The notes below the pieces were generated by a model, which was not told the origin of the DNA, searched no databases, and saw nothing but the letters and a program-made list of their open reading frames with translations. From the IMG/VR virus record IMGVR_UViG_3300044627_002262, positions 1-62,281 of that record: 62,281 nucleotides of DNA. The stretch is one strand, 5' to 3'. A program made the position numbers and the translations under genes. This DNA comes from a virus. Below, in pieces: positions 1,292 to 42,138 of the stretch (its first letter is position 1; every line of letters starts with the position of its first letter).

Positions 1292-1987
1292 TTATTTATC
1301 TTTTACTATTGTACTGAAGTCCTTAATTCTTCTCATAATTGCACTGCCTCGGTCTTCTGAAAGCATTGCAACGATTTGGTTCCCGCTTGAGTTTGAAGTG
1401 ACGATTGTCGGGAGCAGGTTTTGTGTCCTGTTCTCCAATAGGTCAAATAACTCTAACTCTGCTCGTTCTGTCATTTTTTGTTTTCCGAGGTCATCGAGTA
1501 GAAGCAGTTTGATTCGGCGGCATTTGTCCATTGCCTCCTCGGCTAATGCTCTCTGTTTTGACTCGGAGTGCCACTGCTCGCCAGCAAATCGGGAGAATTC
1601 AGTGCAGGTTAATCCGTAGACTGAAGTGCCTGCAAAGTGTTCTCTGCGAAGAAGCCACCATGCTGCACGGGTCTTGCCAGTCCCCGGCGTTCCTTGCATG
1701 AACAATCCAGTTGGTGAGTATTGCCATGCTTGGACTGCATCGCTGAATGCCCCGTGGATGCGTTTTAAATCGCTTTCCCGATACAGAGGTGGGCAGATTG
1801 ATTCAAACGCGCAGGAAAGGCGATTCTGGCGATTTGCGGCGGCATCTGCATCTGCCTTCATCTCCTGTTTTGTGGCACAGTCATCGCAGATGACCGATAG
1901 GTTGAGCTTTCTGCCTGCAACAACCAGTTCAGGGATGGTCATTGCTTCAAAGCAAATGGCGCATGAATGTATTTCAAGTGTTGTCAT
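1292..1987 (-). CDS. DnaC-like AAA+ helicase loader with N-terminal zinc knuckles
   Basis: 231 residues from ATG 1987; the open frame extends to 2050 but that overlaps the preceding gene. Two Cys pairs (C9/C12 and C34/C37) form a probable zinc knuckle. They are followed by an AAA+ ATPase core with Walker A GTPGTGKT (99-106), Walker B LLLLDDLGK (161-169) and a sensor-like TIVTSNSS segment. DnaC/DnaI/lambda-P-type loaders deliver the host replicative helicase to the phage origin. The gene lies directly after a lambda-O-like initiator that contains the candidate origin, and no phage helicase is visible, so the likely partner is host DnaB. IstB-type transposition ATPases share the fold, but there is no transposase. 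Confidence 0.85.
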   Translation of the reverse strand: MTTLEIHSCAICFEAMTIPELVVAGRKLNLSVICDDCATKQEMKADADAAANRQNRLSCAFESICPPLYRESDLKRIHGAFSDAVQAWQYSPTGLFMQGTPGTGKTRAAWWLLRREHFAGTSVYGLTCTEFSRFAGEQWHSESKQRALAEEAMDKCRRIKLLLLDDLGKQKMTERAELELFDLLENRTQNLLPTIVTSNSSGNQIVAMLSEDRGSAIMRRIKDFSTIVKDK

Positions 1988-1991
1988 ATGT

Positions 1992-2717
1992 TTAGTCCCA
2001 TCCCCATTCGCTCTTAACTTCAGGTTTGGAAGGAAGCGTGACAGGAACAACCCGATTCAGCCAACCAATGATGAACTTGCGAGTCATGTCTCGTTTGTTG
2101 TTTTCGCACCATGCCTGCATCTTGCCGAGTTCGGAATCAAGGTTGATGTCAGGGTAGTGCCGCTTGAGGTCTGCAAGCCATTCGGAATCGACTTGTTTTT
2201 GCTCACGCTTCTTCCTTGGCTTTTCAACCTCGTCATTTTTTTCTGCGTCACTGTTACTTAATATAGCGTTAGCTATATTAATAGAAGATGAAGATGAAGA
2301 TGTAATGTTGCCCAATGGTTGCAAGGGTGGTTGCAAGGGTGGTTGCGCCACCCTTGACTTGCGTAACTCGGCAGATTTCTTTCCGCCTTCGCTCGATTTC
2401 TCCTTCCATTTGAATTGTTTGCTACGCTCTTCCTCCAAACGCTCATGAACAAGAATTGTGCCTCCGCTCAAGGGTGCTACCAAGGGTGGTTGCAAGGGTG
2501 GTTGGAACATGGTTAGTACCCTGCTTGCAAGGGTGGTTGAAGCACCCTTGCCTATGAGTCGTGCAACTGCTTCAGGATCAGCAGGTACAGAACCATGCTG
2601 CCAGCAGTATGCCAGCAAACGGATGTATGCGCCTTCCTCCTCCAGAGTCATCAGAGAGACTCGCTGGCTACCCAACCAATCGCTGGGGTAGAATTGAAAT
2701 GCTGGTGATTTATTCAT
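1992..2717 (-). CDS. Replication initiator-like protein (DUF1376/YdaU type, lambda O analogue)
   Basis: 241 residues. The first 70 (MNKSPAFQFYPSDWLG...EEGAYIRLLAYCWQHGSVP) match the DUF1376 N-terminal domain of phage and prophage replication proteins, a winged-helix-like module. The middle has QPPLQPPL repeats at about 73-81 and 121-131 and a serine run; the C-terminus (DSEWLADLKRHYPDINLDSELGKMQAWCENN) looks like a second helical DNA-binding unit. In lambdoid phages this gene precedes the helicase loader and carries the origin inside its coding sequence, and the same layout is seen here with an internal iteron-like array at 2322-2550. The role is inferred from domain and neighbours. It overlaps the upstream glycosyltransferase by 8 bases. 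Confidence 0.8.
   Translation of the reverse strand: MNKSPAFQFYPSDWLGSQRVSLMTLEEEGAYIRLLAYCWQHGSVPADPEAVARLIGKGASTTLASRVLTMFQPPLQPPLVAPLSGGTILVHERLEEERSKQFKWKEKSSEGGKKSAELRKSRVAQPPLQPPLQPLGNITSSSSSSINIANAILSNSDAEKNDEVEKPRKKREQKQVDSEWLADLKRHYPDINLDSELGKMQAWCENNKRDMTRKFIIGWLNRVVPVTLPSKPEVKSEWGWD
2258..2281. repeat. AT-rich perfect dyad beside the iteron array
   Basis: TTAATATAGC (2258-2267) and GCTATATTAA (2272-2281) form a perfect 10-base inverted repeat around GTTA, inside the O-like gene. It is followed by three GAAGATG-type direct repeats up to about 2302. In lambda-type origins an AT-rich segment that melts easily lies beside the iterons, and this element is in the equivalent position. 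A local role in translation is possible but less likely within a coding region. Confidence 0.6.
2322..2550. other. Candidate replication origin: iteron-like array
   Basis: The 12-mer CAAGGGTGGTTG occurs intact at 2322, 2334, 2481, 2493 and 2528, and as CAAGGGTG plus a degenerate end at 2469. Inverted CACCCTTG units lie at 2349-2356 and 2543-2550. Copies are spaced 12 bases apart (2322/2334 and 2469/2481/2493) and two pairs form dyads (2334-2342 with 2348-2356; 2528-2535 with 2543-2550). The 12-mer is read as QPPL in most copies but in another frame (STTLA) at 2528, so DNA rather than protein is conserved. Position in an initiator gene next to an AT-rich dyad resembles lambda ori. Confidence 0.7.
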
Positions 2718-3720
2718 GTATTCCCAAAAAGTTTTTTATCCCAGAGATCACTGATTTTTTCTCTGCAATAATAATGTCGTGCAATTTTCGTTGTGAAGAA
2801 ATTATTTCTTCATGGTTTAACGAATCGATGTATTCATTAAGATTCTGCTTGAAGCAATCTTCAGGGAGGATTGCTTTCGAGTTTAAAGTATATCCACTTT
2901 TATTTATGGTTTGAATTGTATTCGGAGCAAACAGGCATCCAACATCGCACATTAGTGCTTCGTAAAACCTATTCGCCATGAATGCAAAGTTATCGTGAGT
3001 ATGCTTGTCCTCGATGTACAAACTGTATTTATAATTGCGAAGTGATTCTCTTCCAATCTCCCAACTTAATGTATTTGTGCATTTAGAAGTGCATCCAAGA
3101 TCAAGCAACTTCTTCCAGTGCTTGCTGCTGGTCGAAACAGTTAATCCAGAGTGCAAATATTTTTGGAAATCATCAGACCTGTGCTTTCTGTATGTTCCAT
3201 AATATATTATACGCTCTTTTTCGTTTTCTATCATGTCTTTCTTAACTTCAATATCATTCCTGAAAATAAGGCAGTTTAAATTGCAGGTATGCCATTTATC
3301 GATAAAGTTGTTCAGTTTTTTATCAGCAATGTTCTTGCTCAAAATCCAATGTCTGTATCCTGACCTTGGGTTATTGCATATCATGTCGTAACTTCTATGC
3401 TTCTCTGTAATCGCATATCTCAACAACTGGTTGTCCTCAAGATCGTGATCGTTTACCAACCAAACCAACCTTGCATCAGGATTATTATCAATGAACTGCC
3501 TGTATAACTTGTGCGGCATATATGGAGATGCGTAGCAGCAAATTATAACATCATATTTATTCGCTATTAATTTATAGAATGCATATTCTCCATCACATAA
3601 ATCTGCATTCAATTCATTTTTAAGTATTATAGAATTTCTGCAATGCACGATTGATGTATCCGAATAGTTTTCGCACAAAGGTTTTGATTTAGAGGTAGCT
3701 TCAATAATTAGAATTTTCAT
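2710..3720 (-). CDS. Glycosyltransferase-like protein (GT-B type)
   Basis: 336 residues from ATG 3720 (MKILIIEAT...). The N-terminal half has Rossmann-like strands (YDVIICCYASPYMP, ARLVWLVNDHDLED). The C-terminal half carries a second sugar-nucleotide-type domain (ERIIYYGTYRKHRSDDFQKY, then KYSLYIEDKHTHDNFAFMANRFYEALMC), the usual layout of GT-B transferases such as phage DNA glucosyltransferases. The gene is visibly more AT-rich than its neighbours, suggesting later acquisition. It sits between nuclease/RecT and the O-like initiator, so a DNA-base substrate is possible, but there is no visible enzyme making a modified nucleotide. Acceptor and sugar are unknown. Confidence 0.6.
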   Translation of the reverse strand: MKILIIEATSKSKPLCENYSDTSIVHCRNSIILKNELNADLCDGEYAFYKLIANKYDVIICCYASPYMPHKLYRQFIDNNPDARLVWLVNDHDLEDNQLLRYAITEKHRSYDMICNNPRSGYRHWILSKNIADKKLNNFIDKWHTCNLNCLIFRNDIEVKKDMIENEKERIIYYGTYRKHRSDDFQKYLHSGLTVSTSSKHWKKLLDLGCTSKCTNTLSWEIGRESLRNYKYSLYIEDKHTHDNFAFMANRFYEALMCDVGCLFAPNTIQTINKSGYTLNSKAILPEDCFKQNLNEYIDSLNHEEIISSQRKLHDIIIAEKKSVISGIKNFLGIHE

Positions 3721-4045
3721 CAGCAACACTCTTCTTGGTTTGAAATATGCCTTCCAAATCATTCTCCTGCTCCATGATCAGGCGAGCATAGCAAGCCCGA
3801 AAATCATTGGAGAGTTTGTATGGTTCTTCCGAATTGGTAGCCATGTAGTAATTCCAACGCAGTACTTCGTAGAGCATGGCAATGCCAAGTTTTGCGTCTG
3901 GTTGACGCTGGCGAAACTGCCTCGCCAACACAACCAGTGAGTCGTACACCTGTGGATTCCCAGCATGGAATCTGGCAAACCTCGCAGGGATGGAATCGTC
4001 CTCTACCTCTGGAAGGTCGAAGTCGATTTCGAGTTGATCTATCAT
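3701..4045 (-). CDS. Hypothetical early protein
   Basis: 114 residues, predominantly helical, with an acidic N-terminus (MIDQLEIDFDLPEVEDDSIP) and a conserved-looking centre (ARFHAGNPQVYDSLVVLARQ...LGIAMLYEVLRWNYYM...KLSNDFRACYARLIM). Proteins of this pattern are found beside phage recombination genes, but I cannot assign a function. The leader is the A/T-rich AATAAATAAATATAT type without Shine-Dalgarno. The end overlaps the start of the glycosyltransferase by 20 bases. Confidence 0.75.
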   Translation of the reverse strand: MIDQLEIDFDLPEVEDDSIPARFARFHAGNPQVYDSLVVLARQFRQRQPDAKLGIAMLYEVLRWNYYMATNSEEPYKLSNDFRACYARLIMEQENDLEGIFQTKKSVADENSNY

Positions 4046-11150: not shown

Positions 11151-14100
11151 TTATTTTTTAGTTTCACCAGTCAAATTGGACAAGGTCATTTTTGCTTTCT
11201 CCAATGATGCCTGAAGTTTTTGCTTTGACTTCTCATCGGTAGCAGTAGCCAATTCGCGTTTAAATTTCGCGACCTTCAACTCTGCTTCTTCCAGTTTTTT
11301 TTCTGCTGCGTTTTCGTCATCTTCTGCTTTTTTGCGAGCGGCAAGCAATGCGACATACTCTTCTGGAGTTTTTGCATTCTGCACACCTGTCAATGCCACT
11401 TCTTCTTCAGGAGTGAGAAGACGAACAATTTCTGTTCTCTTTTTGCCGTCCACTTCAACCAACCGATTAACTTTGAATAGCGATGCATATGCCATGATCT
11501 CGTCCACATTGTCGGCGGCATCGGCATAGTCTGCTGGTTCCGATCCCGAAACTTGCGCTCCGTACAATCCAAACAATTCTTTTTCGTTGTACCAAAGTGC
11601 GGCTTGCATATCTGCGATGGTGATATCGATTCCTTTTCTGCGAAGTTTTTTCTGCGCGATCTCCATCACATCTTGCTGGAAGTCACGCTCCAGATCGGTT
11701 CTCGGAGCGGCAACTGGGTCAGTGCGATTTTCAACCCAGTTCTTTGCTGCTCGTCGCAAGTCGCTTTTAGCTTTGTACTGCCCCTTGCGATACCTGTCCT
11801 CAAGTGCTGTTGCCAACTCCAACATTTTTTGAGGGTCTGCCAGCAACTTGTCGAGTCCATCTCTCGATATGCCGTCCAACTCTGGCTCGTTCATGTAATC
11901 GAAAAACTCTTTTTCGCCATCTTTGTTTATTCGCTTCAGAAGAGGCTCAAATTTCTCGCCAGCACTATTTGCGGAATCTGATCGATACTGCTCCAGAATA
12001 GATTTTCTGAAAGTATCATATTGATTCGCTTCCTTCAGTGGTGCGTGTTGGAAAACATTCCCAAGAATTCTATTCCATGTACGGGTGAACCACAGGTCTG
12101 CCGTGAGCGTTGTGTAGTCGCCATGCAGGTTATTGATGAACGATCCGATCTTAGGCCCAAACACGCTAAACCCAGTCACCATCTGGTCTGCCTGTCCATC
12201 AACTGTTAGAGGCTTGCCTTTGAACCAGAGATTTTTGTTTTTCTTAAAATATCCGTTCCATTCCGAAACAGTCATTTTTTTCCTGAACAATTTATCGAGT
12301 GCCTGAATCCCGTTGTTTTTAATCAACTCATCGAGCTTCAAAAGATTGTTTTCAATCGCACGGGTTTCTCCTCCAAATGTGCCGTACAATTCGTCTTTAA
12401 TCTCTGGCAGTGTCTTTCCGCTTTCGAGCAGGAACTGCACCCTTGCTGCCATCTTTCCGTTCTCAAAAACATTGTTGCCTTGCGATGCTATGCCAAGCAC
12501 CGAGTCAAAGATGAATTCTTTGTCTGCATCGTATGTAGGAGTTCCACGATTCAAGAATGGGAAGAACTCGGAATACTTTTGCTTCATCTTCTTCAGAGCA
12601 GTGTCGTACCACCCGATTGCGTTCGGTGCTTCCGGGTTCTTTGCTGCTCGCTCCATATGCCCTTGGATTTCGTCAACGATTGTCTCGGCAACGATCTGTC
12701 CTGCTCTGGTGCTGTAATCGCCGGGTTGAATGAACCCATCGTCTGCACTGCGTTTCTGCAATGCATACATCAGGTCATTCACCGAGGTCTTCAGCCTGCC
12801 GCCTTTCGTATAGTACGATTCAGGCACTGTGAACTTCTCTGTGCCATCCAGAATTGGAGTCACAGATCGGCTCAACCCACTTGTGGGGTACAACTGCTCT
12901 CGGATGTAATCCGCAACCTCCTGACCTAATCCGTAGCGTTCTGCGAATCGGTCTGGGTCGAAGGTGAACCCTTCTCCTGCGAGGGATTTTGCGTACGGGA
13001 TAAGAACTGAATCGATACCCCTTCGGAGTAGTATGGGGAATCCTCTGGCAAGTCTGGTATCTTGCTGTATTGCCTTTGGAATTCCTCCCTGCTGATCTTG
13101 TGTATTTTCTTCATTTATTGATTCTCCTTTTATCCAATCTGGTACTTTTAGACTTCCATCATCTGCTGTAAAGTCTGAAGTCGTGTCATAGTAAAATGAA
13201 TCGACAAGAGTTTTATTGATATTTTTGATGTTTGATGCTTTTTGAATTTCAATAAGTTTGTCTTCAAATTTATCAATATTATCAAAATTTGCTGCCTTGA
13301 TGCCCCTTCCATCAACAGTCACTGACAACCCGTCAATACCCACTTCTTTTGCTTTTTTAAAGGCATTGAGTATTTGCTCTTCGGTTAGTTTTTTGTCATG
13401 GACAAGGTAGACAGATGGTGCGCCTTCGGTTAGTCCAATACTTGGTTTCCATGCGATGCCAGCATCCTGCGTCATCAAGACTGACAACCACTTTGTGACC
13501 GACTGCGACTGCTCCCATGTCATGTTTGGAGCGGAGAAAACAAAACTTGGTTCAGCCTCAAATTTCCATGTACCAAGAATGTTGTCGAATTGGATGCCAG
13601 TGAGTCCTGCCGCTTCAGCAATAAACTCTTTGAATTTTTTGGTCTTGAAGAGCGTTGCGACTGCCCCCTGAAGGGATTTTAGCCCGACACTTACATCTTG
13701 TTCTTGTTTCTTTACAAGAGCGACATACGCTTCGTATGCGGCAAGGTCTTTTGCGTATTTAGCTTTATCTTCTTTTGAAGCATCCTGCGGTATATCGGCA
13801 GGCTTCTCGACAGGAACAGGCACTTCTCGATTGTCCACTGGGAACTTGAATGGCGCAGGAACCATGCCCCGATTCATCAAGTTTATTGACCTTGTCAATC
13901 GGTCAACCTCGGCAACCTGTGCAGCATCATTCAAAGTAAAATCCCGATCTGGATTTTCCATGAACTCGTTTAGCAAGTCGGCTATTTCTTCCGACCTTTG
14001 GATGTCATCTTGGGATTTATCTTCTTTATTTTTGATATCGATATTTTCCCAATAGAGATTGCCGATATCGAGTAGTGCATCTCGTTTTTTGTTCAACTCA

Positions 14101-17100
14101 TCATTGCGAGGAGTCAACACTTCAATCAGGTACTTTTTTCGATCCTGCGATAGTTCCAATGTGGGAGTGAGATCGGCAACTGTGGTGTACCCAAATCCGT
14201 ACTTGCCGGGCTTGCCGCCGATCACCACAGAGAAGTCGCCAGCATCTGCCTGCATCGTCCTCTCAACGGGAGTTGGCTTCTTCGGCAGTACAACCATGCT
14301 CAATGGTTTTTCAACCTGCTGCTGCTGTTCTGGAGCGGTTGCTTCGCTCAATGGCAAGCCTTCGCCTGCTGGCATGAATCGAATGTCTAACGAGGTAGTC
14401 TGGAACCTCTGCGAGAGAGGGATTACATTGCCTTCGCCATCGTATGTTACTGGGTCTGCTGATTTGATTTGCTCTGGGTTAAATACAGCATAGTTGATTG
14501 GTGCGCCCATCCCATCAGTTACACGAATAGCGTCTTGACCTCTTTCTTTTGCTTTTGCGATAGCGCGAACTTCATCATATGAACGAACAATTCCTTTTCT
14601 AACATTTTCAGCCTTTAAAAATACAGGCATGACTTTCCCAAAAACAGATGCTTCGTTTATATCTGTTGCTACAAAAATAGCACCACCAAGAGCAGAATTA
14701 GGTTCAAAAACATTAAATGGAGATTGTGATCTTGTTCCGTGGAATCCTTTAATATTATATCCAGCCCTCTTTGCCGCCTCATCCACCATCTTCTGCAACT
14801 GCGATTGGTTATCCTCTGGGTTTTTGGCAAAGTTGAGGTACTCTGCATCTGACACTGCTGGCATGAACTGCAACTGCCCTGCACTGACAACTTTTGCCAT
14901 CTCTGGGGTGATGTTTACTCGCCAGATTGGGGTTTGTTTAGATTCTGGTGCTTTATTATATGCATTGAAATCTTCGTAATCAGTTGGTTTGCCTTTTGGA
15001 GTTTCTATTTCAGACTTCTCAACCTTGCCCCCCATCTTGCCAACATATTTACCGATCTCTTTTGGAAGGATTTGATCGTAGAATCCTTTCATGCCTTCGC
15101 CACCGACTTTAAGGTCTGCATTTTCAAGGACGCGCCACCCGTTTTTATCTTTTTCTTGCGCTAAAAGTTTTTGAGCGGTTTCTTTTCCAATATAATCTGC
15201 TAATTTATCAGGGGTAATTCCAGTTTGAATGATTGGCATTTCTCTTCCCTTTTCGCCAGTTAACCTTCCCCCTTGTTTGTCTTCATTGTATTCGATGCGA
15301 TCAATCTGCTTACTCAAATCATATCGTTCAGCTTGCGTGTCTCCAACAGTCCAACCGATCCATTGCTTGCCTGACTCTACGGCATCGCGCAATGCGCGTT
15401 TAAAGAGTTGTAGTGACCAATCTTTTCGGAATGGCGCGTCTGGGATACCTTCTCTTAAAGTTGTATTTCTTGCTTGTCTTGCTTGATTCCTCAAAGAATT
15501 AAGTTCTGTTAATAAATCAGGGGTGAGAGGAGTTGGTGCTTCATTATTCAGATACTCCATACGAGCCTGTTGCTCGTTTGTTAAATCTTCAAAAGATTTA
15601 TCTTCCAAATACCCCTTCTCCCTTCCTGCCTGATGCCTGTCAGACTGCAATTCTTCGATGAACAATCCATCGTTGCCTTCAGCATCTGTGCGCTCATTCA
15701 AGCGCATATGCGCTACATAGTTGTGAACATTTGGGAAGTGGGATGAGGTGTATTCTCCAGCGCGGTTGAAGCGTGAGCGCACTTTATCCATCGCCTGACT
15801 GCGTTCTTGTGGTGTCCAAGATTCCCACTGTTTGCCAGCATCCATCTTAGCCTGATCCTCAATGTCTGATTCAGCGATTCCGCGATTTTTCTCTGGCATT
15901 GCCATCACAACTTCACGATAGTTTTCACCACCGGAGAGTTGGTATTTAGCGTATTTTGGAGCAGGTAATTTTGATGCGTTATCTATTGCATTTTGTAATG
16001 CGAATGGCAGTTCATCAAATTCAAGTGGATCATCAAACTCGTCGTAAAATGCTGCCTCACCATATTGATCTTCAATTTTTATTCTATAGGTATCAGCAAT
16101 ATCTTTAACCGAAGCATCTTCTCCAAGTGTCACTTCTTCAAATTTGACCTGACCTTCGTTGCGAAGATAGTCCATCAGTTCAACCACAGGAACCTTGCCG
16201 TTGTTCTCGCCTGCGAGTCGGTCAATGGCATCCAGTACGCCTGACCATTTGACCTCTTCCTGCTTCACATTCTGCGGGTTCGTAATGACTGCCTTCAACT
16301 GCTCTGGCGTTGCTGTTGCGCCTTGGAATTTGCGTTGGATTTCTGTTTGCAGTTTGCTCTTGAATCCACGCTCGCCAGATGGTGCTTCTGCAACTGCTGG
16401 CATGAACTGCGTGATCGGGCCTAACGATTTATCACCTTTATAAAGAATCTTAATCTTTGAATCATCAAAGATAACATAATTATATGTTTTTGGAACACTT
16501 GTTATTTGTTCAGCAGTAAGTCCAATCTGTTTTTGTTTGGTTTGAGTTATCCTATCAGTAAATTTAATACCATCGAATCCCATCGCTTTTAATTGCATGG
16601 AGGCTTCTTTAGGATTACCAATATATTCGCTTAATGCATCATAATAATCTCCAACTGTATCAATTCTAACTGGGAAAGCAGTGTCTATTTCAATATTTTT
16701 TTTCAAATCGTCTACTTTATCTCGAAGTCTTGAGTCTATATTGCTATTCCAATCAAGAATTTTATCTTCATCTATATCAAGATCAACTTTATATTGATAT
16801 TGAAGAGGAACAAATTTATCTATTTCTTTTCTATTCTCTGCAAAGTAAAGACCCCATCCATACACTTGTTCTTTATTCCCAGAATTAATAAAGTCTAAAT
16901 TAAATTTATCAAAGTCTGCTCTTGATGCATGGAATGCAGGCAGGTATTGCAACCCAGCAGGCGCAACAACTGCGTTTTCAAATCGAGTTCCACTCTGGAT
17001 GCGATCTTTGAGCGATTGGCGATATTGCATCACATCGTTTGCTGCCGCCACGATTTGCTCGTCAGTGATATCCGGCGAGATTTGCAATGCGCCTGCTTCG

Positions 17101-20100
17101 TTCACAACGCTACGGATGTACTCTGGAAGCGTCTGGGTTGCGTTATCGACCCTGCCTTCGTTGTAATTGTCCACTGCCGCCAGAATGAGGTCTTGCGGAG
17201 AATTCATCATATCCACCTCGGTGGTTTCTGGTGCTTCTACGATCTCCTCGGTTGCTGCCGCCTGATCTTGTGCCTGCGATTCCAGTTGCTGGTAGATTTT
17301 TTCCAGTTCGGTTTCGAGTGCTGGAATGATCGGACTACGACCCCCGTCTGCGTAGAGTTGATCGAGTTTGGATGAAAGTACCTTGGCGATGTCTTGCGGC
17401 GGCACAGTGCCGTCCTGTGCGTCCAGAATAGCCAATTCTGCCTCGGTCTCGGCATCGATGTCCGAAACGATCTCCTCTGGTTCAAGCGAGGCGACATTTT
17501 CAGGGTCAAACATCGACACGATCTGAATCCTCGGCATCTGGTCTTGTCCCTGCACCAACTGCAATGACTCGGTTGGGAGCAAATCGTCCATCTGGCGCAA
17601 CTCGCTTTCGAGTGCATCAATCTCGCCAGTTGCCATTGCGCGGCGAACACGGGTAGCAGTGACGCTACCATCGAATCGGTTCTGAACCTCCTCGGCAGTC
17701 ATCGGTGCTGCCATCGGGTTAACCGCTGGCATATAATTTGTGGTTAGGTAGCCATAATTTATCGGCAACTTTTGCGAGGGTGACTCCGAAAAATTATTGA
17801 TGCGATCAAGCCGACGAGACCGAATTACAATGTCAAGATTGTCTTTGCCTCTTGCCCTTGGAAGTGTGCTGCGGTCAGGGTTGGATTCTTTGGTCTCTGC
17901 GTTGTATGCATTGAAAAGATCGTTGATCTTATTCTTCATTTTGCCTGCGATGTATGCGTCAGGATGAAGTCCAGTCTCGCCTTTTTCGCCCCTTGAATGA
18001 TTATCAAGTAGCTTTATTAAAGAGTCCCAGAATGCACCTGTATCGCCATTCCAAGGTTGCAAGTTCTCTGGCTTTTTATCTGACCACGCTTGCATTTTAT
18101 CGTATAGGCGACTGATAGAAATTGTGGTGAGCGCAAAGTTGCCGTCCTTCGTGAGTTGAAACCCGATTGGCACTTCATCGCGAATTTTTGGAGAGAGTGC
18201 TTTGTACCTGCCATTCAGCAGTGATGCTTGGTACTCCATGACAACGCGAGTGCCATCATTCCGCGCCATGAGTTCGTTGAAAAACTTGGTCATGCGCTTC
18301 AGGTTTGGCGAAACCACTTCGTTTGGCAGTGCCATGAATGCCTCGATTTGAGCGGGAGACATAACCCCTCGATAGTTTCCATTTCCAGTGTCTGAAAGTC
18401 TAATGCCAGACCCGTCGTCTTTCGCGGAATCAATCGCATTTTGGATAATTTCTGTCCGCTTCCTTGCGCGAGCTTTCATCTCACGATTTGTCAAGATAAT
18501 CGGACTGCCGTCTGGTTTTCGAGCAATGCGCGTGTCGGTCTCAAATGTAGTTCCGTCTGGCATCGAGCCAAATGTAATTTCAGGCCCAAGTGTCACCACA
18601 TTGCCATTGGCATCGACCAACTGACCCCCCTGCGTCCTGTATACATCAACGAATGGATCAATTTTCGCACCAGCAGGAACAACGATTTCGGTGACACTAC
18701 CATCAGGCGCAGTCGCTTTGATGATCTGCTCCTTCTCGAAAAAGTCTGCGTGTCGATATTTATTTTGGAGCGCAACACTGCCCAGAACCTTGGTCAACGG
18801 AATGTCTGGTTCATCGGATTCGCGACTCTGCTGGACAGTCATTGTGCCGTCAAAATCTTTTAGACCTCTCTGGTACTGACGCACCATTGCAAGCGTCTCT
18901 GGTGACATCTGCGCTCCAAGAACAGAAGAGTATCCACCAGCATTGTCAAAAAGGATTCCGTTTTTTCGGAGCGTCTCTTTCAGTTGCTTCAGCCTACCAC
19001 TTTTGGTCTTGACCTCAAACCAGTCCATGACATTGCGACCAACATCATCGAGCGATGCGCGAGTTCCACCTGCATACTCGCCAGTGGCAGCAGCAGTCTC
19101 TGCAAGAATTTCGTCTTTGATGTACGCTCGCATCTTCTCGACCTCCCCGCCGAATTGAGCGTAGAAACTCGCCCCATTGTCGCTCGGAGACATCATCTTT
19201 GCGTACTGCGTAGCGTACCTGTCCAAGTCTTCGTCAGAGTAAATTCCCTGCTGGTAAACCTCGACACTACCATCATCGTTTTTGATTTTCTGGTCGAACA
19301 ATTGACCACGCAACGGAGCGAGCATCTTGTTTACTTCTGCGAACTGTTGCACTGCGTGTTGAACCTCATGCTGGAGCGTGTGGCGCAAATTTAGACCCTG
19401 CGAGGTCATGTGCTTGATTAGGTCTGCATTGATTACAGCAGTTGCTCCCTGCTGGTTGATTCGGCGCAAATGTGGAGGAACGAATCCCTCTGAATTCGGG
19501 TCAGCATTGTCTTCCTGCAATGCGAATCCACGCGCAGATTTTGCGCCTTCAACATCGTTCTGGAACTTCTGCAAGAGTTGCCGTGCCTCAGTGAGCTTTT
19601 GACTGTCAGTCTCGGTGAGAGATGGAATGCCAGTGAGCAGATTGATAGTAGTCTCTGCTTGTTTCAATGAGTCACCATAAAGGTCACGGAAAAATTGATC
19701 AGCGTTTGCTGGATCAAGAACGGCAATTTTAACTCCGCGAAGTCCAGCAACTCCACCTGTGGATTGTGCAAGATCGTATGCGTCAATGAATGCGAGTGCG
19801 GTCTGGCGAGTTGCCTCTGCCTGCGTTTCTGGAGTTGATTTGGAAAGTGCTTCCCGTTGCTTCAGGAACCCGTCAATCTGTTTTTGATCAAAGGCAGCAT
19901 CTTCTGGGTTGATTTGAGCGTCTCGCTTCTTTTCGAGACTTGCAATGCTGGTCTCGATTGCTGCTTTGCGACTCTCGATGTTTGATAGATCGGCAATGTT
20001 TTGCTGAATCTCTGGAGATGCTTGCGCCATGAACCGCTTGATATCGGCATCTTCATCGCGGCGATAGGCAGCAGGGTCTGGAGTGACAAGATTGGTGATC

Positions 20101-21602
20101 TTTTCTGCCATCGTCGTGCGAGGATCAATCAGTCCACCAATTCGCTCGTACGATCTCGTCCCTGCCAGACTGCCAATGCCAAATCCTGTTCCAGCACTGA
20201 ATCCGAGGTCTTCTGCCGTCTCGATGTCTGGCAGACCCATTACGACATTCATCGCGGCAGCATTAATGCCCGGTTGAATCAACGCATTCGATTGGCGAAT
20301 CGTCCAGTCGGCTAACTTTGCTCGCGCAACTCCACCTTTTCCTTGCGCCCCAAAAAGTTTTTTTGTCAGGTCACTGGAATCTATTGCTTGCCCTGCTCGC
20401 TCAACCATTCCCCTTCTTCCTGCCGTTCCGGCAATGTCAGCTTGCTTTGTGATGTCCTTGATCACCCTTGCAGTTGCAGAAACAGGTTTTGCAACGCTAA
20501 CAACGGGTAGGATTGCAGTGTTTACAGTACCTTTGATCCAAGTGTCTGGATCATTTATTGCGTACTCGCCAATTTTTTTTGCGCCAGTCTGAAGAAGTTC
20601 AGTTCCCTGAAGGACTTTGTTTGCGGCGTATTCAGTTCCTGCCGCAAGTTTGGAAGTGCCTTGCATTGCAAAGTCTCCTGCCTTGTTCATTACTGGAGCG
20701 GTTACTTTGGAAAGAGGCTTTAAAACTGCTCCGCTCAACCTGCCTCCACCGGGGATAGCCACAGGTGAAACAAACTCTCCCAGCGCAGAAATATTCTGGT
20801 TGATCTGGTCTTTAGTAAGACCCTGATCAAGCATGGTCTGGATATAGTCTTGCTTTACTTTTTCGACTTCTTCAGGAGACAATCCCATCTTCTTTGCCTC
20901 GTACTCAACATATCCCTGAATCAGCGGATTTTGAGAAAGAAGTGCGGCAACTCGGTCTGGATTTTGTTCTGTTTCTTGAGCTTCCAACTGACGCATGGTT
21001 TGTCTGTTTTGCCATGCTCGGAAGCGTTCTTCTTCACTTTTCCCAAACAATTTGTCAGTAGTAGCACTGCCAAACATTCCAAATCTAACAGCAGCATTTA
21101 CTGTTTCTTCAATATCTTTTGCTGCACCAATTCCAAGAGACCTAATTGCCTCTTCGCGTTCTTTAAATACTTTCTTTGCCTCTTCTGAATCTAAACGACC
21201 ATAGCCTCCAGAAAGTGCAAAAGCAGCAGGCTGAACAACTGCTTTGTTTGCTAACTCAACTGCGCCTGATGCAGTTTGCCCAATGATATCTGCTGCTGCT
21301 GGAATAAATGCTCCTACTGCACCAGATGCTTTGTCCGCAAGACTGCGTTCGTCTTCTGCTTTGAACAGTTTCCGTTGGAGTTTGTCAGATAACTTAACCC
21401 CTTCAGACTGCATCTTCTTGATTTCATCGATGCTTAAATCGTCTTCTAATTTAATGCCTTCTGGAACTTCTTTAAATGACTTGGGAGGTTCTAATACAGC
21501 ACCTTCTGGTATTTCTTTAAATGACTTGGGAGGTTCAGGTTCCAACCCGATAACTTTAACTCCTTCAGGTGGTTCTTTAAACGATTGTTGCGGTTCAGCC
21601 AT
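11151..21602 (-). CDS. Giant polyvalent virion/ejection protein (zincin, two ART-like domains, LPD)
   Basis: 3483 residues, one sixth of the genome. Order: three SFKExPEG repeats (1-50); Ala/Gly-rich hydrophobic helical region (60-500); a zincin-type metallopeptidase motif HEVQH (745-749); unknown region to about 1290; an ADP-ribosyltransferase-like domain beginning FHASRADF and containing YGWGLYFAEN (about 1555-1725); a phage-typical large-polyvalent-protein domain (GENYREVVMAMPE...LFIEELQSDRHQ...RAGWTVGD-like, about 1890-2235); a second ART-like domain beginning GFHGTRS (about 2280-2400); and a long C-terminal region. The motif [FY][ML]PA recurs at 1291, 1554, 1734, 2247 and 2410, at domain boundaries. 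Such proteins are packaged and injected to act in the new host. Its last-of-the-virion-block position matches T7 gp16-like genes. It is not an N4-type RNA polymerase: no polymerase motif is seen. Confidence 0.85.
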   Translation of the reverse strand: MAEPQQSFKEPPEGVKVIGLEPEPPKSFKEIPEGAVLEPPKSFKEVPEGIKLEDDLSIDEIKKMQSEGVKLSDKLQRKLFKAEDERSLADKASGAVGAFIPAAADIIGQTASGAVELANKAVVQPAAFALSGGYGRLDSEEAKKVFKEREEAIRSLGIGAAKDIEETVNAAVRFGMFGSATTDKLFGKSEEERFRAWQNRQTMRQLEAQETEQNPDRVAALLSQNPLIQGYVEYEAKKMGLSPEEVEKVKQDYIQTMLDQGLTKDQINQNISALGEFVSPVAIPGGGRLSGAVLKPLSKVTAPVMNKAGDFAMQGTSKLAAGTEYAANKVLQGTELLQTGAKKIGEYAINDPDTWIKGTVNTAILPVVSVAKPVSATARVIKDITKQADIAGTAGRRGMVERAGQAIDSSDLTKKLFGAQGKGGVARAKLADWTIRQSNALIQPGINAAAMNVVMGLPDIETAEDLGFSAGTGFGIGSLAGTRSYERIGGLIDPRTTMAEKITNLVTPDPAAYRRDEDADIKRFMAQASPEIQQNIADLSNIESRKAAIETSIASLEKKRDAQINPEDAAFDQKQIDGFLKQREALSKSTPETQAEATRQTALAFIDAYDLAQSTGGVAGLRGVKIAVLDPANADQFFRDLYGDSLKQAETTINLLTGIPSLTETDSQKLTEARQLLQKFQNDVEGAKSARGFALQEDNADPNSEGFVPPHLRRINQQGATAVINADLIKHMTSQGLNLRHTLQHEVQHAVQQFAEVNKMLAPLRGQLFDQKIKNDDGSVEVYQQGIYSDEDLDRYATQYAKMMSPSDNGASFYAQFGGEVEKMRAYIKDEILAETAAATGEYAGGTRASLDDVGRNVMDWFEVKTKSGRLKQLKETLRKNGILFDNAGGYSSVLGAQMSPETLAMVRQYQRGLKDFDGTMTVQQSRESDEPDIPLTKVLGSVALQNKYRHADFFEKEQIIKATAPDGSVTEIVVPAGAKIDPFVDVYRTQGGQLVDANGNVVTLGPEITFGSMPDGTTFETDTRIARKPDGSPIILTNREMKARARKRTEIIQNAIDSAKDDGSGIRLSDTGNGNYRGVMSPAQIEAFMALPNEVVSPNLKRMTKFFNELMARNDGTRVVMEYQASLLNGRYKALSPKIRDEVPIGFQLTKDGNFALTTISISRLYDKMQAWSDKKPENLQPWNGDTGAFWDSLIKLLDNHSRGEKGETGLHPDAYIAGKMKNKINDLFNAYNAETKESNPDRSTLPRARGKDNLDIVIRSRRLDRINNFSESPSQKLPINYGYLTTNYMPAVNPMAAPMTAEEVQNRFDGSVTATRVRRAMATGEIDALESELRQMDDLLPTESLQLVQGQDQMPRIQIVSMFDPENVASLEPEEIVSDIDAETEAELAILDAQDGTVPPQDIAKVLSSKLDQLYADGGRSPIIPALETELEKIYQQLESQAQDQAAATEEIVEAPETTEVDMMNSPQDLILAAVDNYNEGRVDNATQTLPEYIRSVVNEAGALQISPDITDEQIVAAANDVMQYRQSLKDRIQSGTRFENAVVAPAGLQYLPAFHASRADFDKFNLDFINSGNKEQVYGWGLYFAENRKEIDKFVPLQYQYKVDLDIDEDKILDWNSNIDSRLRDKVDDLKKNIEIDTAFPVRIDTVGDYYDALSEYIGNPKEASMQLKAMGFDGIKFTDRITQTKQKQIGLTAEQITSVPKTYNYVIFDDSKIKILYKGDKSLGPITQFMPAVAEAPSGERGFKSKLQTEIQRKFQGATATPEQLKAVITNPQNVKQEEVKWSGVLDAIDRLAGENNGKVPVVELMDYLRNEGQVKFEEVTLGEDASVKDIADTYRIKIEDQYGEAAFYDEFDDPLEFDELPFALQNAIDNASKLPAPKYAKYQLSGGENYREVVMAMPEKNRGIAESDIEDQAKMDAGKQWESWTPQERSQAMDKVRSRFNRAGEYTSSHFPNVHNYVAHMRLNERTDAEGNDGLFIEELQSDRHQAGREKGYLEDKSFEDLTNEQQARMEYLNNEAPTPLTPDLLTELNSLRNQARQARNTTLREGIPDAPFRKDWSLQLFKRALRDAVESGKQWIGWTVGDTQAERYDLSKQIDRIEYNEDKQGGRLTGEKGREMPIIQTGITPDKLADYIGKETAQKLLAQEKDKNGWRVLENADLKVGGEGMKGFYDQILPKEIGKYVGKMGGKVEKSEIETPKGKPTDYEDFNAYNKAPESKQTPIWRVNITPEMAKVVSAGQLQFMPAVSDAEYLNFAKNPEDNQSQLQKMVDEAAKRAGYNIKGFHGTRSQSPFNVFEPNSALGGAIFVATDINEASVFGKVMPVFLKAENVRKGIVRSYDEVRAIAKAKERGQDAIRVTDGMGAPINYAVFNPEQIKSADPVTYDGEGNVIPLSQRFQTTSLDIRFMPAGEGLPLSEATAPEQQQQVEKPLSMVVLPKKPTPVERTMQADAGDFSVVIGGKPGKYGFGYTTVADLTPTLELSQDRKKYLIEVLTPRNDELNKKRDALLDIGNLYWENIDIKNKEDKSQDDIQRSEEIADLLNEFMENPDRDFTLNDAAQVAEVDRLTRSINLMNRGMVPAPFKFPVDNREVPVPVEKPADIPQDASKEDKAKYAKDLAAYEAYVALVKKQEQDVSVGLKSLQGAVATLFKTKKFKEFIAEAAGLTGIQFDNILGTWKFEAEPSFVFSAPNMTWEQSQSVTKWLSVLMTQDAGIAWKPSIGLTEGAPSVYLVHDKKLTEEQILNAFKKAKEVGIDGLSVTVDGRGIKAANFDNIDKFEDKLIEIQKASNIKNINKTLVDSFYYDTTSDFTADDGSLKVPDWIKGESINEENTQDQQGGIPKAIQQDTRLARGFPILLRRGIDSVLIPYAKSLAGEGFTFDPDRFAERYGLGQEVADYIREQLYPTSGLSRSVTPILDGTEKFTVPESYYTKGGRLKTSVNDLMYALQKRSADDGFIQPGDYSTRAGQIVAETIVDEIQGHMERAAKNPEAPNAIGWYDTALKKMKQKYSEFFPFLNRGTPTYDADKEFIFDSVLGIASQGNNVFENGKMAARVQFLLESGKTLPEIKDELYGTFGGETRAIENNLLKLDELIKNNGIQALDKLFRKKMTVSEWNGYFKKNKNLWFKGKPLTVDGQADQMVTGFSVFGPKIGSFINNLHGDYTTLTADLWFTRTWNRILGNVFQHAPLKEANQYDTFRKSILEQYRSDSANSAGEKFEPLLKRINKDGEKEFFDYMNEPELDGISRDGLDKLLADPQKMLELATALEDRYRKGQYKAKSDLRRAAKNWVENRTDPVAAPRTDLERDFQQDVMEIAQKKLRRKGIDITIADMQAALWYNEKELFGLYGAQVSGSEPADYADAADNVDEIMAYASLFKVNRLVEVDGKKRTEIVRLLTPEEEVALTGVQNAKTPEEYVALLAARKKAEDDENAAEKKLEEAELKVAKFKRELATATDEKSKQKLQASLEKAKMTLSNLTGETKK

Positions 21603-41010: not shown

Positions 41011-42137
41011 TTATCCTACAACAGTCCAATTTTTTGCTGTTGCAATTGCAGGGTTGTCGGTCGCTATGCCGTAGTTGCCCGTGACAGTTATAGTTTGTGT
41101 TGGTAGCGCAGTTAAATCAGCAAGGTTAGTGTAAATCTCGTTAAGATTTGTTGCGCTTAAAGCGCAATTTGCGAATGAAACAGTGCTTTTTATTCCTGTT
41201 GCTTGGCAACGCTTCAGCCCGTTGCAATTTATTGCAAATGAAATTATACTTGTTGCACTTGAGCAATTAAGGTTAGGGATGCTTTGAAGCGATCTACAAG
41301 CATTAAACATACTAGTCATGTTTGTTACAGCAGAAGTATTAAATAAAGGAACACTCTGAAGTGCAGAGCAAGCTTGAAACATATTGCTCATGTTTGTTAC
41401 AGCAATAGTATTAAATGATGGAACACTCTGAAGTGCGGCGCAAGCTTGAAACATACTAGCCATGTTTGTTACAGCAGAAGTATTAAATAAAGGAACACTC
41501 TGAAGTGCGGCGCAAGCTTGAAACATACTAGCCATGTTTGTTACAGCAGCAGTGTTAAATGATGGAACACTCTGAAGTGCAGAGCAACCAGAAAACAAAT
41601 TAGTCATGTTTGTCGCATTGTGCGAAAGAATAGTGCATTGCTCAAGAAGTCTAAGATTTCCTATTGTTCCACCAATTAGCCATGTCGTGCAGCTAGGAGC
41701 GGATAAAGTAATTTCAAGAATTGGCGTAGTGTATGTTGTCGCGCCAAGTGACGAATGCTTAAAATCAAATGATATAGATGTAAGATTTCGCCCCGCTTGC
41801 GGCGTAATCACAATCATTGCCTGCCGCATTTTAGAACCAACAGGCCCAATCTCTGTTGATGCAGAGAGGCTACTAAACAAATAGTTATGCTCTGCCGTAA
41901 CTCCAGCAGCAACATTTTCAATATTACCATCACCCCAATCAACTGTGTAGTTTCCAGAAAAACGGAACGCAACAAAATTGCTGTCGTTATCTCCCACAAG
42001 AAAAAGCGCGGCTACTTTTTGTTCTGTTGAGATAATTGTCGGCATGGCAATCCAATCACTGGGGCGAGTCCACCATGTAGTGGCTCCGCTGGAAATGAGA
42101 ATGTTGCCAAGGTATATTTTTCCAGTAGTTGTGGGCA

Positions 42138-42138
<1 letters not shown>
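41011..42138 (-). CDS. BspA-like leucine-rich repeat surface protein
   Basis: 375 residues. N-terminal beta domain (FSGNYTVDWGDGNIENVAAG, a PKD-like turn), then BspA/DUF285-type repeats of 24 residues (MFQACAALQSVPLFNTSAVTNMAS), about residues 180-300. These repeats occur in surface proteins of bacteria and protists and usually bind ligands. In the adhesin block it is likely part of a tail fibre. The repeats are nearly identical at DNA level. Confidence 0.7.
41317..41676. repeat. 72-base tandem repeat in the BspA-like gene
   Basis: CATGTTTGTTACAGC-type units begin at 41317, 41389, 41461, 41533 and 41605, always 72 bases apart (24 codons). Units differ by a few bases only, so the array expanded recently and can change in copy number by slippage or recombination. 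The last unit is degenerate. Confidence 0.8.

What the first reader, a model, noticed from the sequence alone, without database searches (positions are those of the whole stretch)
2258..2550. Lambda-like replication origin inside the initiator gene, built of a new 12-base iteron
Eight CAAGGGTG-based units (five full CAAGGGTGGTTG) lie at 12-base spacing and as two dyads in the O-like gene, beside a perfect AT-rich dyad TTAATATAGC/GCTATATTAA. The same 12-mer is translated in different frames (QPPL versus STTLA), so selection acts on DNA. Lambda O and related initiators carry their origins in this way. The iteron sequence is not one I recognise. Copies differ in orientation and distance, which could define initiator dimer sites.
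Basis: partly seen in the sequence, partly recalled or inferred. Interest (0 to 1): 0.8.

Follow-up and report, generated by a model that had tools for sequence, protein, structure and literature searches.

The report
Replication origin inside a DUF1376 gene
The repeats are almost certainly a phage's DNA-replication start site, buried inside the gene for the protein that starts replication; the same layout, with different repeat words, recurs in about half of a widespread protein family of unknown function (DUF1376), including ydaU of E. coli K-12.

Summary
In detail: eight CAAGGGTG units (five full CAAGGGTGGTTG), two dyads and the TTAATATAGC/GCTATATTAA dyad, all inside the gene at 1992-2717(-). 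The origin reading is well supported; the "O-like" label needs correcting. The protein is DUF1376, with no detectable sequence homology to lambda O, followed by a DnaC-like loader. Across IMG/VR, all 16 contigs with the tandem iteron carry it in a DUF1376 gene, in all three reading frames. Codons 57-64 (KGASTTLA) are the same in 13 of 14 relatives, against 60% at other invariant residues. The layout is family-wide: 33 of 64 diverse DUF1376 genes carry significant in-gene repeats. The words differ (GGTTAACC, CACCAAA, TGTTCAAAC...), but many sit at the same two places, just before a (TCT/TCA)n tract (95% of serine codons there, 42% elsewhere) and an AT peak. E. coli holds natural chimeras: YdaU's N-terminus plus repeats joined to a different C-terminus and a lambda-P-type loader; YdaU's C-terminus joined to other N-termini with their own repeats. 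So DUF1376 looks like a DNA-binding domain interchangeable with that of lambda O, travelling with its own origin. Binding and replication are not shown. Similar in-gene origins are known (lambda, pSK41); I found no report for DUF1376.

The parts
1992..2717 (-). DUF1376 initiator gene, 241 aa; residues 1-120 predicted winged-helix DNA-binding domain, about 134-172 disordered linker, 178-221 helical C-terminal domain
   Evidence: Pfam PF07120 E 1.4e-6 (29.1 bits; cut-off 30.1), PHROG 9327 'primosomal protein' E 2.5e-14; AlphaFold N-domain pLDDT 86.8, full protein
1292..1987 (-). DnaC/IstB-like helicase loader gene (ATG at 1987; a TTG at 2050 would lengthen it)
   Evidence: PHROG 50 DnaC-like helicase loader E 2.6e-23; Pfam IstB E 2e-8; starts 4 nt after the initiator stop
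2469..2550 (.). Iteron cluster A (gene nt 168-249): CAAGGGTG units at 2469, 2481, 2493, 2528 (+) and 2550-2539 (-); dyad 2528-2550
   Evidence: codons 57-64 (KGASTTLA) identical in 13 of 14 relatives
2322..2356 (.). Iteron cluster B (gene nt 362-396): units at 2322, 2334 (+) and 2356-2345 (-); dyad 2334-2356
   Evidence: same place in relatives L006-L101 and in other iteron classes
2283..2303 (-). Serine-coding hexanucleotide tract ACATCTTCATCTTCATCTTCT (coding strand), proposed part of the unwinding/loading element
   Evidence: Family-wide 404/424 tract Ser codons are TCT/TCA against 410/987 elsewhere; GC-rich loci 187/201 against 142/463
2258..2281 (.). AT-rich perfect dyad TTAATATAGC-GTTA-GCTATATTAA
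   Evidence: intact in L007, damaged in L006, absent in L008
2230..2319 (.). AT-rich stretch (68-72% AT per 50 bp, the AT peak of the gene interior) next to cluster B: candidate DNA-unwinding element
   Evidence: family-wide AT peak at the tract and the next 30 nt (+14 and +11 points, p about 1e-8)

Best explanation
The region is a phage replication origin carried inside its own initiator gene. The DUF1376 N-terminal domain (predicted winged helix) binds the CAAGGGTGGTTG iterons in clusters A and B of its gene. Bound protein strains and opens the neighbouring (TCATCT)n/AT-rich element. The C-terminal domain then recruits the loader encoded by the next gene, which places the host helicase. Shown here: DNA-level selection on the iterons and on the tract; their fixed order; independence from the reading frame; exchange of N-terminus-plus-repeats against C-terminus-plus-loader. 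Inferred: binding, opening, loading, and any bridging between the two clusters.
For: Iteron word in three coding frames, all 16 IMG/VR contigs with the tandem word having it in DUF1376 genes (one truncated copy assigned by near identity to L091). Codon freeze at KGASTTLA. Family-wide repeats against synonymous permutation: 33 of 64 versus 5 of 50 neighbouring genes at a similar threshold. TCT/TCA tract bias p 4e-93 and AT peak. Repeat words follow the N-terminal domain: shared by 83% of gene pairs at 70-80% identity, about 1% below 40%. E. coli chimeras: L246 = YdaU N-terminus and repeats + other C-terminus + P-like loader; L247/L248 = other N-terminus with AGCGTTAC repeats + YdaU C-terminus + YdaV. 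YdaU C-terminus 46% identical to Gifsy-2 O, whose N-terminus is PF04492. L088 and L018 C-termini match PHROG 678 'replication initiation O-like'. Neighbour gene is a DnaC-like loader. Winged-helix model; nearest solved folds mostly plasmid initiators, weakly.
Against: No binding or replication data. GC skew of the record shows no switch near 2 kb, but the record may be a fragment. Foldseek hits to solved initiators are not significant (best E 0.056). About half of the family does not pass the repeat test, perhaps for too few or too degenerate copies, perhaps because the origin lies elsewhere. The arrays of the closest relatives partly reflect common descent.
Confidence: 0.86

Rival explanations
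1. The repeats are binding sites of the DUF1376 protein, but for regulation (autorepression, copy control, incompatibility) rather than the origin itself.
For: Cluster A is separated from the AT-rich element by more than 100 bp, and iterons of plasmids can also regulate (PMC5703833).
Against: Sites lie mid-gene, not at a promoter; they abut an AT-rich element and a conserved tract in the lambda order; the repeats travel with the N-terminal domain while C-terminus and loader are exchanged.
Confidence: 0.08
2. Protein-level repeats: a proline-rich linker (QPPL) and a serine linker that expanded by slippage.
For: In-frame 12-base units can expand as four-codon repeats; serine-rich linkers are common.
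Against: The same DNA word is read as QPPL, TTLA and NHPC, and in inverted orientation; synonymous codons are frozen; tract codons ignore host codon usage in GC-rich loci; in L008 and L088 similar T/C-rich DNA is read in other frames (LQSSVFSLQSSV, TLLLQS).
Confidence: 0.02
3. A recombination or swapping site: repeats and simple tract mainly promote exchange of C-terminal domains.
For: Exchanges of C-termini do occur just after the repeats (YdaU nt 495/497 breakpoints; L088 against L095).
Against: The repeat word depends on the N-terminal domain rather than being common to exchange partners; swapping needs only shared flanks.
Confidence: 0.04

Closest known systems
Phage lambda O gene and ori-lambda (PF04492 Phage_rep_O; J02459)
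   Same: Iterons in the middle of the initiator gene (lambda gene nt 349-433; here nt 362-396 for the near cluster), then an AT-rich element, then the loader gene; exchangeable N-terminus (origin) and C-terminus (loader) (PMC5043065, PMC7466680)
   Different: No detectable homology of the DNA-binding domain (hhalign probability 1.5%); 12-bp units instead of 18-19-bp inverted-repeat iterons; a second iteron cluster inside the DNA-binding-domain coding region; a TCT/TCA tract; DnaC-like rather than P-like loader in the window
E. coli K-12 Rac prophage YdaU/YdaV (DUF1376 + DnaC-like loader)
   Same: Same domain family, gene order, repeats at gene nt 389-460 followed by a simple repeat; Rac is said to have an active origin, oriJ (PMC3945230)
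   Different: Repeat word TGTTCAAAC; C-terminal domain of another type; I could not confirm that oriJ lies in ydaU
RepA_N plasmid initiators (pSK41 Rep)
   Same: Origin centrally in rep, N-terminal 120 residues bind it, linker encoded by the origin is dispensable (PMC5703833); 7 of the top 9 PDB fold matches of the N-domain are entries 4pt7/4pql/5kbj, titled initiator, N-terminal domain of DNA-binding protein and Rep-DNA complex
   Different: Fold matches not significant (E 0.06 to 0.5); no such sequence match in the PDB search; different repeats; plasmid, no adjacent loader

Membership tests
DUF1376 (PF07120) | Pfam profile match | tested here: met
   Window 29.1 bits, E 1.4e-6, just under the 30.1 cut-off; same-class relatives L088 36.8 and L095 37.4 bits pass; N-domain model matches DUF1376 models, E to 4e-8
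Lambda O family (PF04492) | Phage_rep_O N-terminal domain | tested here: not met
   No PF04492 match; hhalign against lambda O probability 1.5%
Lambda O family (PF04492) | Iterons inside the initiator gene followed by an AT-rich element | tested here: met
Lambda O family (PF04492) | C-terminal domain shared with O proteins | tested here: inconclusive
   Met for YdaU against Gifsy-2 O and for L088 and L018; no phage match for the window's own C-terminus
Lambda O family (PF04492) | Adjacent helicase-loader gene | tested here: met
   DnaC/IstB-like gene at 1292-1987
Lambda-type origin (works like) | Initiator binds iterons and opens the AT-rich region | not testable with these tools
   needs purified protein
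RepA_N initiators | RepA_N fold and sequence | tested here: inconclusive
   Best structural matches but E 0.056 or worse; no sequence match

The most novel reading that the evidence does not exclude
DUF1376 is the origin-recognition domain of a large, separate class of phage initiators. Each carries its own bipartite iteron origin in two fixed places of the gene plus a frame-independent (TCT/TCA)n element that serves as a common unwinding or strand-capture site. The class therefore gives a readable code linking DNA-binding domain to iteron word, and marks the likely origin in many phage genomes, including ydaU (possibly oriJ) in E. coli K-12.
Probability: 0.6. Interest if true: 0.72.

Novelty: new variant of a known kind. 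Interest (0 to 1): 0.6.

Why it matters
It gives a function and a mechanism to a widespread domain of unknown function, and lets origins be read from sequence in uncultured phages. Dozens of domain-iteron pairs become available to learn how winged-helix initiators choose DNA. The E. coli Rac prophage offers a bench system, and the natural chimeras offer ready-made controls.

Tried and rejected
GC skew of the record: no informative switch. Rfam: nothing but a sub-threshold Vault-like match outside the array. Foldseek of the full-length model: no significant match, so the N-domain alone was modelled. CACCAAA triple pattern: only 6 of 80 retrieved loci in DUF1376 genes, the pattern is too loose. 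The repeat test is not perfectly calibrated: 5 of 50 control genes at p<=0.01 and 17 of 50 at p<=0.05 for either test; one of the five is a true protein-repeat gene in this window. The AT dyad was rejected as a general element. Window C-terminus in phages: no match. Searches of the held papers found only a handful that mention DUF1376, and none of the listed titles and abstracts treats it as an initiator.

Full report
The observation. The gene at 1992-2717(-) carries eight CAAGGGTG units, five of them the full CAAGGGTGGTTG; the full 12-mer occurs nowhere else in the record. They form two clusters, at gene nt 168-249 (A) and 362-396 (B). Between B and the C-terminal half lie a hexanucleotide tract (2283-2303) and the AT dyad (2258-2281), in the AT-rich peak of the gene interior. 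Permuting synonymous codons within the gene gives 4.2 repeated 9-mer pairs on average against 87 observed.

The gene. The protein is a DUF1376 protein, PHROG 'primosomal protein', and the next gene is a DnaC/IstB-like loader. Upstream genes are RecT-like and exonuclease-like, so this is an early replication-recombination block. The N-terminal 124 residues are modelled with good confidence (pLDDT 86.8); several family members match winged-helix or helix-turn-helix Pfam models. In the PDB, seven of the nine best fold matches are entries 4pt7, 4pql and 5kbj ('initiator', 'N-terminal domain of DNA binding protein', 'Rep-DNA complex'), which from my own knowledge I take to be RepA_N-type initiators, but none is significant.

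Selection acts on DNA. A scan of all IMG/VR for AACCACCCTTNNAACCACCCTT found 16 contigs, and all 16 matches lie in DUF1376 genes (15 by HMM, the last a truncated copy nearly identical to L091). The word is read as QPPL (frame 1), TTLA (frame 2) and NHPC (frame 0), and in both orientations. Among 14 relatives the codons of KGASTTLA are the same in 13 (12 for the last codon), while at other invariant residues the commonest codon averages 60%. L087 has lost that site.

The layout is family-wide. I took 64 DUF1376 genes under 70% identity from viral contigs and bacterial genomes. With synonymous permutation and the serine tract masked, 33 carry significant repeats in one of two tests. Neighbouring genes reach a similar threshold in 5 of 50, so the excess is large though the null is not perfect. 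Words differ by lineage: AAGGTTA/GGTTAACC, CACCAAA, AACATCT, ATGGCTC, ATAACAA and others. In the AAGGTTA and ACCCTTG classes they sit at the same two places, near nt 140-240 and 350-410; in other classes mostly at the second place, before the tract. A tandem GGTTAACC pattern found 3 contigs, all in DUF1376 genes. Gene pairs share a repeated word in 83% of cases at 70-80% N-terminal identity and in about 1% below 40%.

The tract. After the repeats comes a serine run. 404 of 424 of its serine codons are TCT or TCA, against 410 of 987 elsewhere in the same genes; in loci of at least 55% GC, 187 of 201 against 142 of 463. In L008 and L088 comparable DNA is read in other frames. AT content peaks at the tract (+14 points) and the next 30 nt (+11), p about 1e-8. 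This is the expected place of an unwinding element.

Modularity. L088 and L095 are nearly identical up to and a little past the tract and unrelated after it. In E. coli, YdaU has repeats TGTTCAAAC at nt 389-460. Strain BMH-17-0027 (L246) keeps this N-terminus and most of the repeats but has another C-terminus, and its next gene is a P-like loader (PHROG 109, the family of lambda P) instead of YdaV. Strains LWY24 and H10 have a non-DUF1376 N-terminus with its own AGCGTTAC repeats, joined to the YdaU C-terminus and YdaV. Megablast matches break at YdaU nt 495 or 497, just after the repeats. The YdaU C-terminus is 46% identical over 120 residues to that of Gifsy-2 O, whose N-terminus is PF04492. 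This is the logic known for lambda O: N-terminus with origin, C-terminus with loader (established knowledge of lambda genetics).

What it is. The best explanation is an origin inside its initiator gene. It works like ori-lambda: iterons bound by the initiator, opening of the adjacent AT-rich region, loading of helicase through the neighbouring loader (lambda facts: PMC5043065, PMC7466680). It is not a member of the lambda O family by sequence. RepA_N plasmids such as pSK41 have the same solution (PMC5703833). Binding, opening and loading are inferred here.

Limits. No experiment bears on this phage. About half of the family does not pass the repeat test. GC skew is uninformative. Whether oriJ of Rac lies in ydaU could not be checked; the held text says only that Rac has an active origin (PMC3945230). 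The library holds only open-licence papers, so earlier work on DUF1376 or YdaU may exist; phage records already name some YdaU relatives 'DNA replication protein O' or 'primosomal protein I'.

Noticed in passing
window 2710-3762 (-): 350-aa ORF without Pfam, PHROG or NCBIfam match sits between the initiator and the RecT block. Its first residues (FKPRRVLL) resemble the reading upstream of the initiator in L007 (YSKPRRVLQT), which suggests an inserted gene.
   Followed up: partly
window 41011-42138 (-): 376-aa protein with four 72-bp, leucine-rich-like repeats (protein-level duplication); it came up as a control in the repeat test.
   Followed up: partly
window 11151-21602 (-): A 3,483-aa ORF (10.5 kb), apparently a very large multi-domain phage protein.
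   Followed up: no
L247:1074-1862 and L248:970-1758: E. coli initiators of another family (PHROG 2509/9474) also have two repeat clusters (AGCGTTAC class, gene nt about 148-180 and 367-403) followed by a GAGGAAGA simple repeat: the same layout with an unrelated N-terminus.
   Followed up: partly
L102 and L103 (Granulicella, Hymenobacter): Relatives with about 60% N-terminal identity carry TAAGGGTGGTTA-type units where the window has CAAGGGTGGTTG: both outer bases change together, keeping the ends symmetric.
   Followed up: no
L118, L123, L128, L105, L119: Further repeat classes: AAGGATATCCTT/GGATACC (acidobacterial and one Burkholderiaceae MAG), ATGGCTCAGCCATG (L105), ATCGATAACAAA (L119).
   Followed up: no
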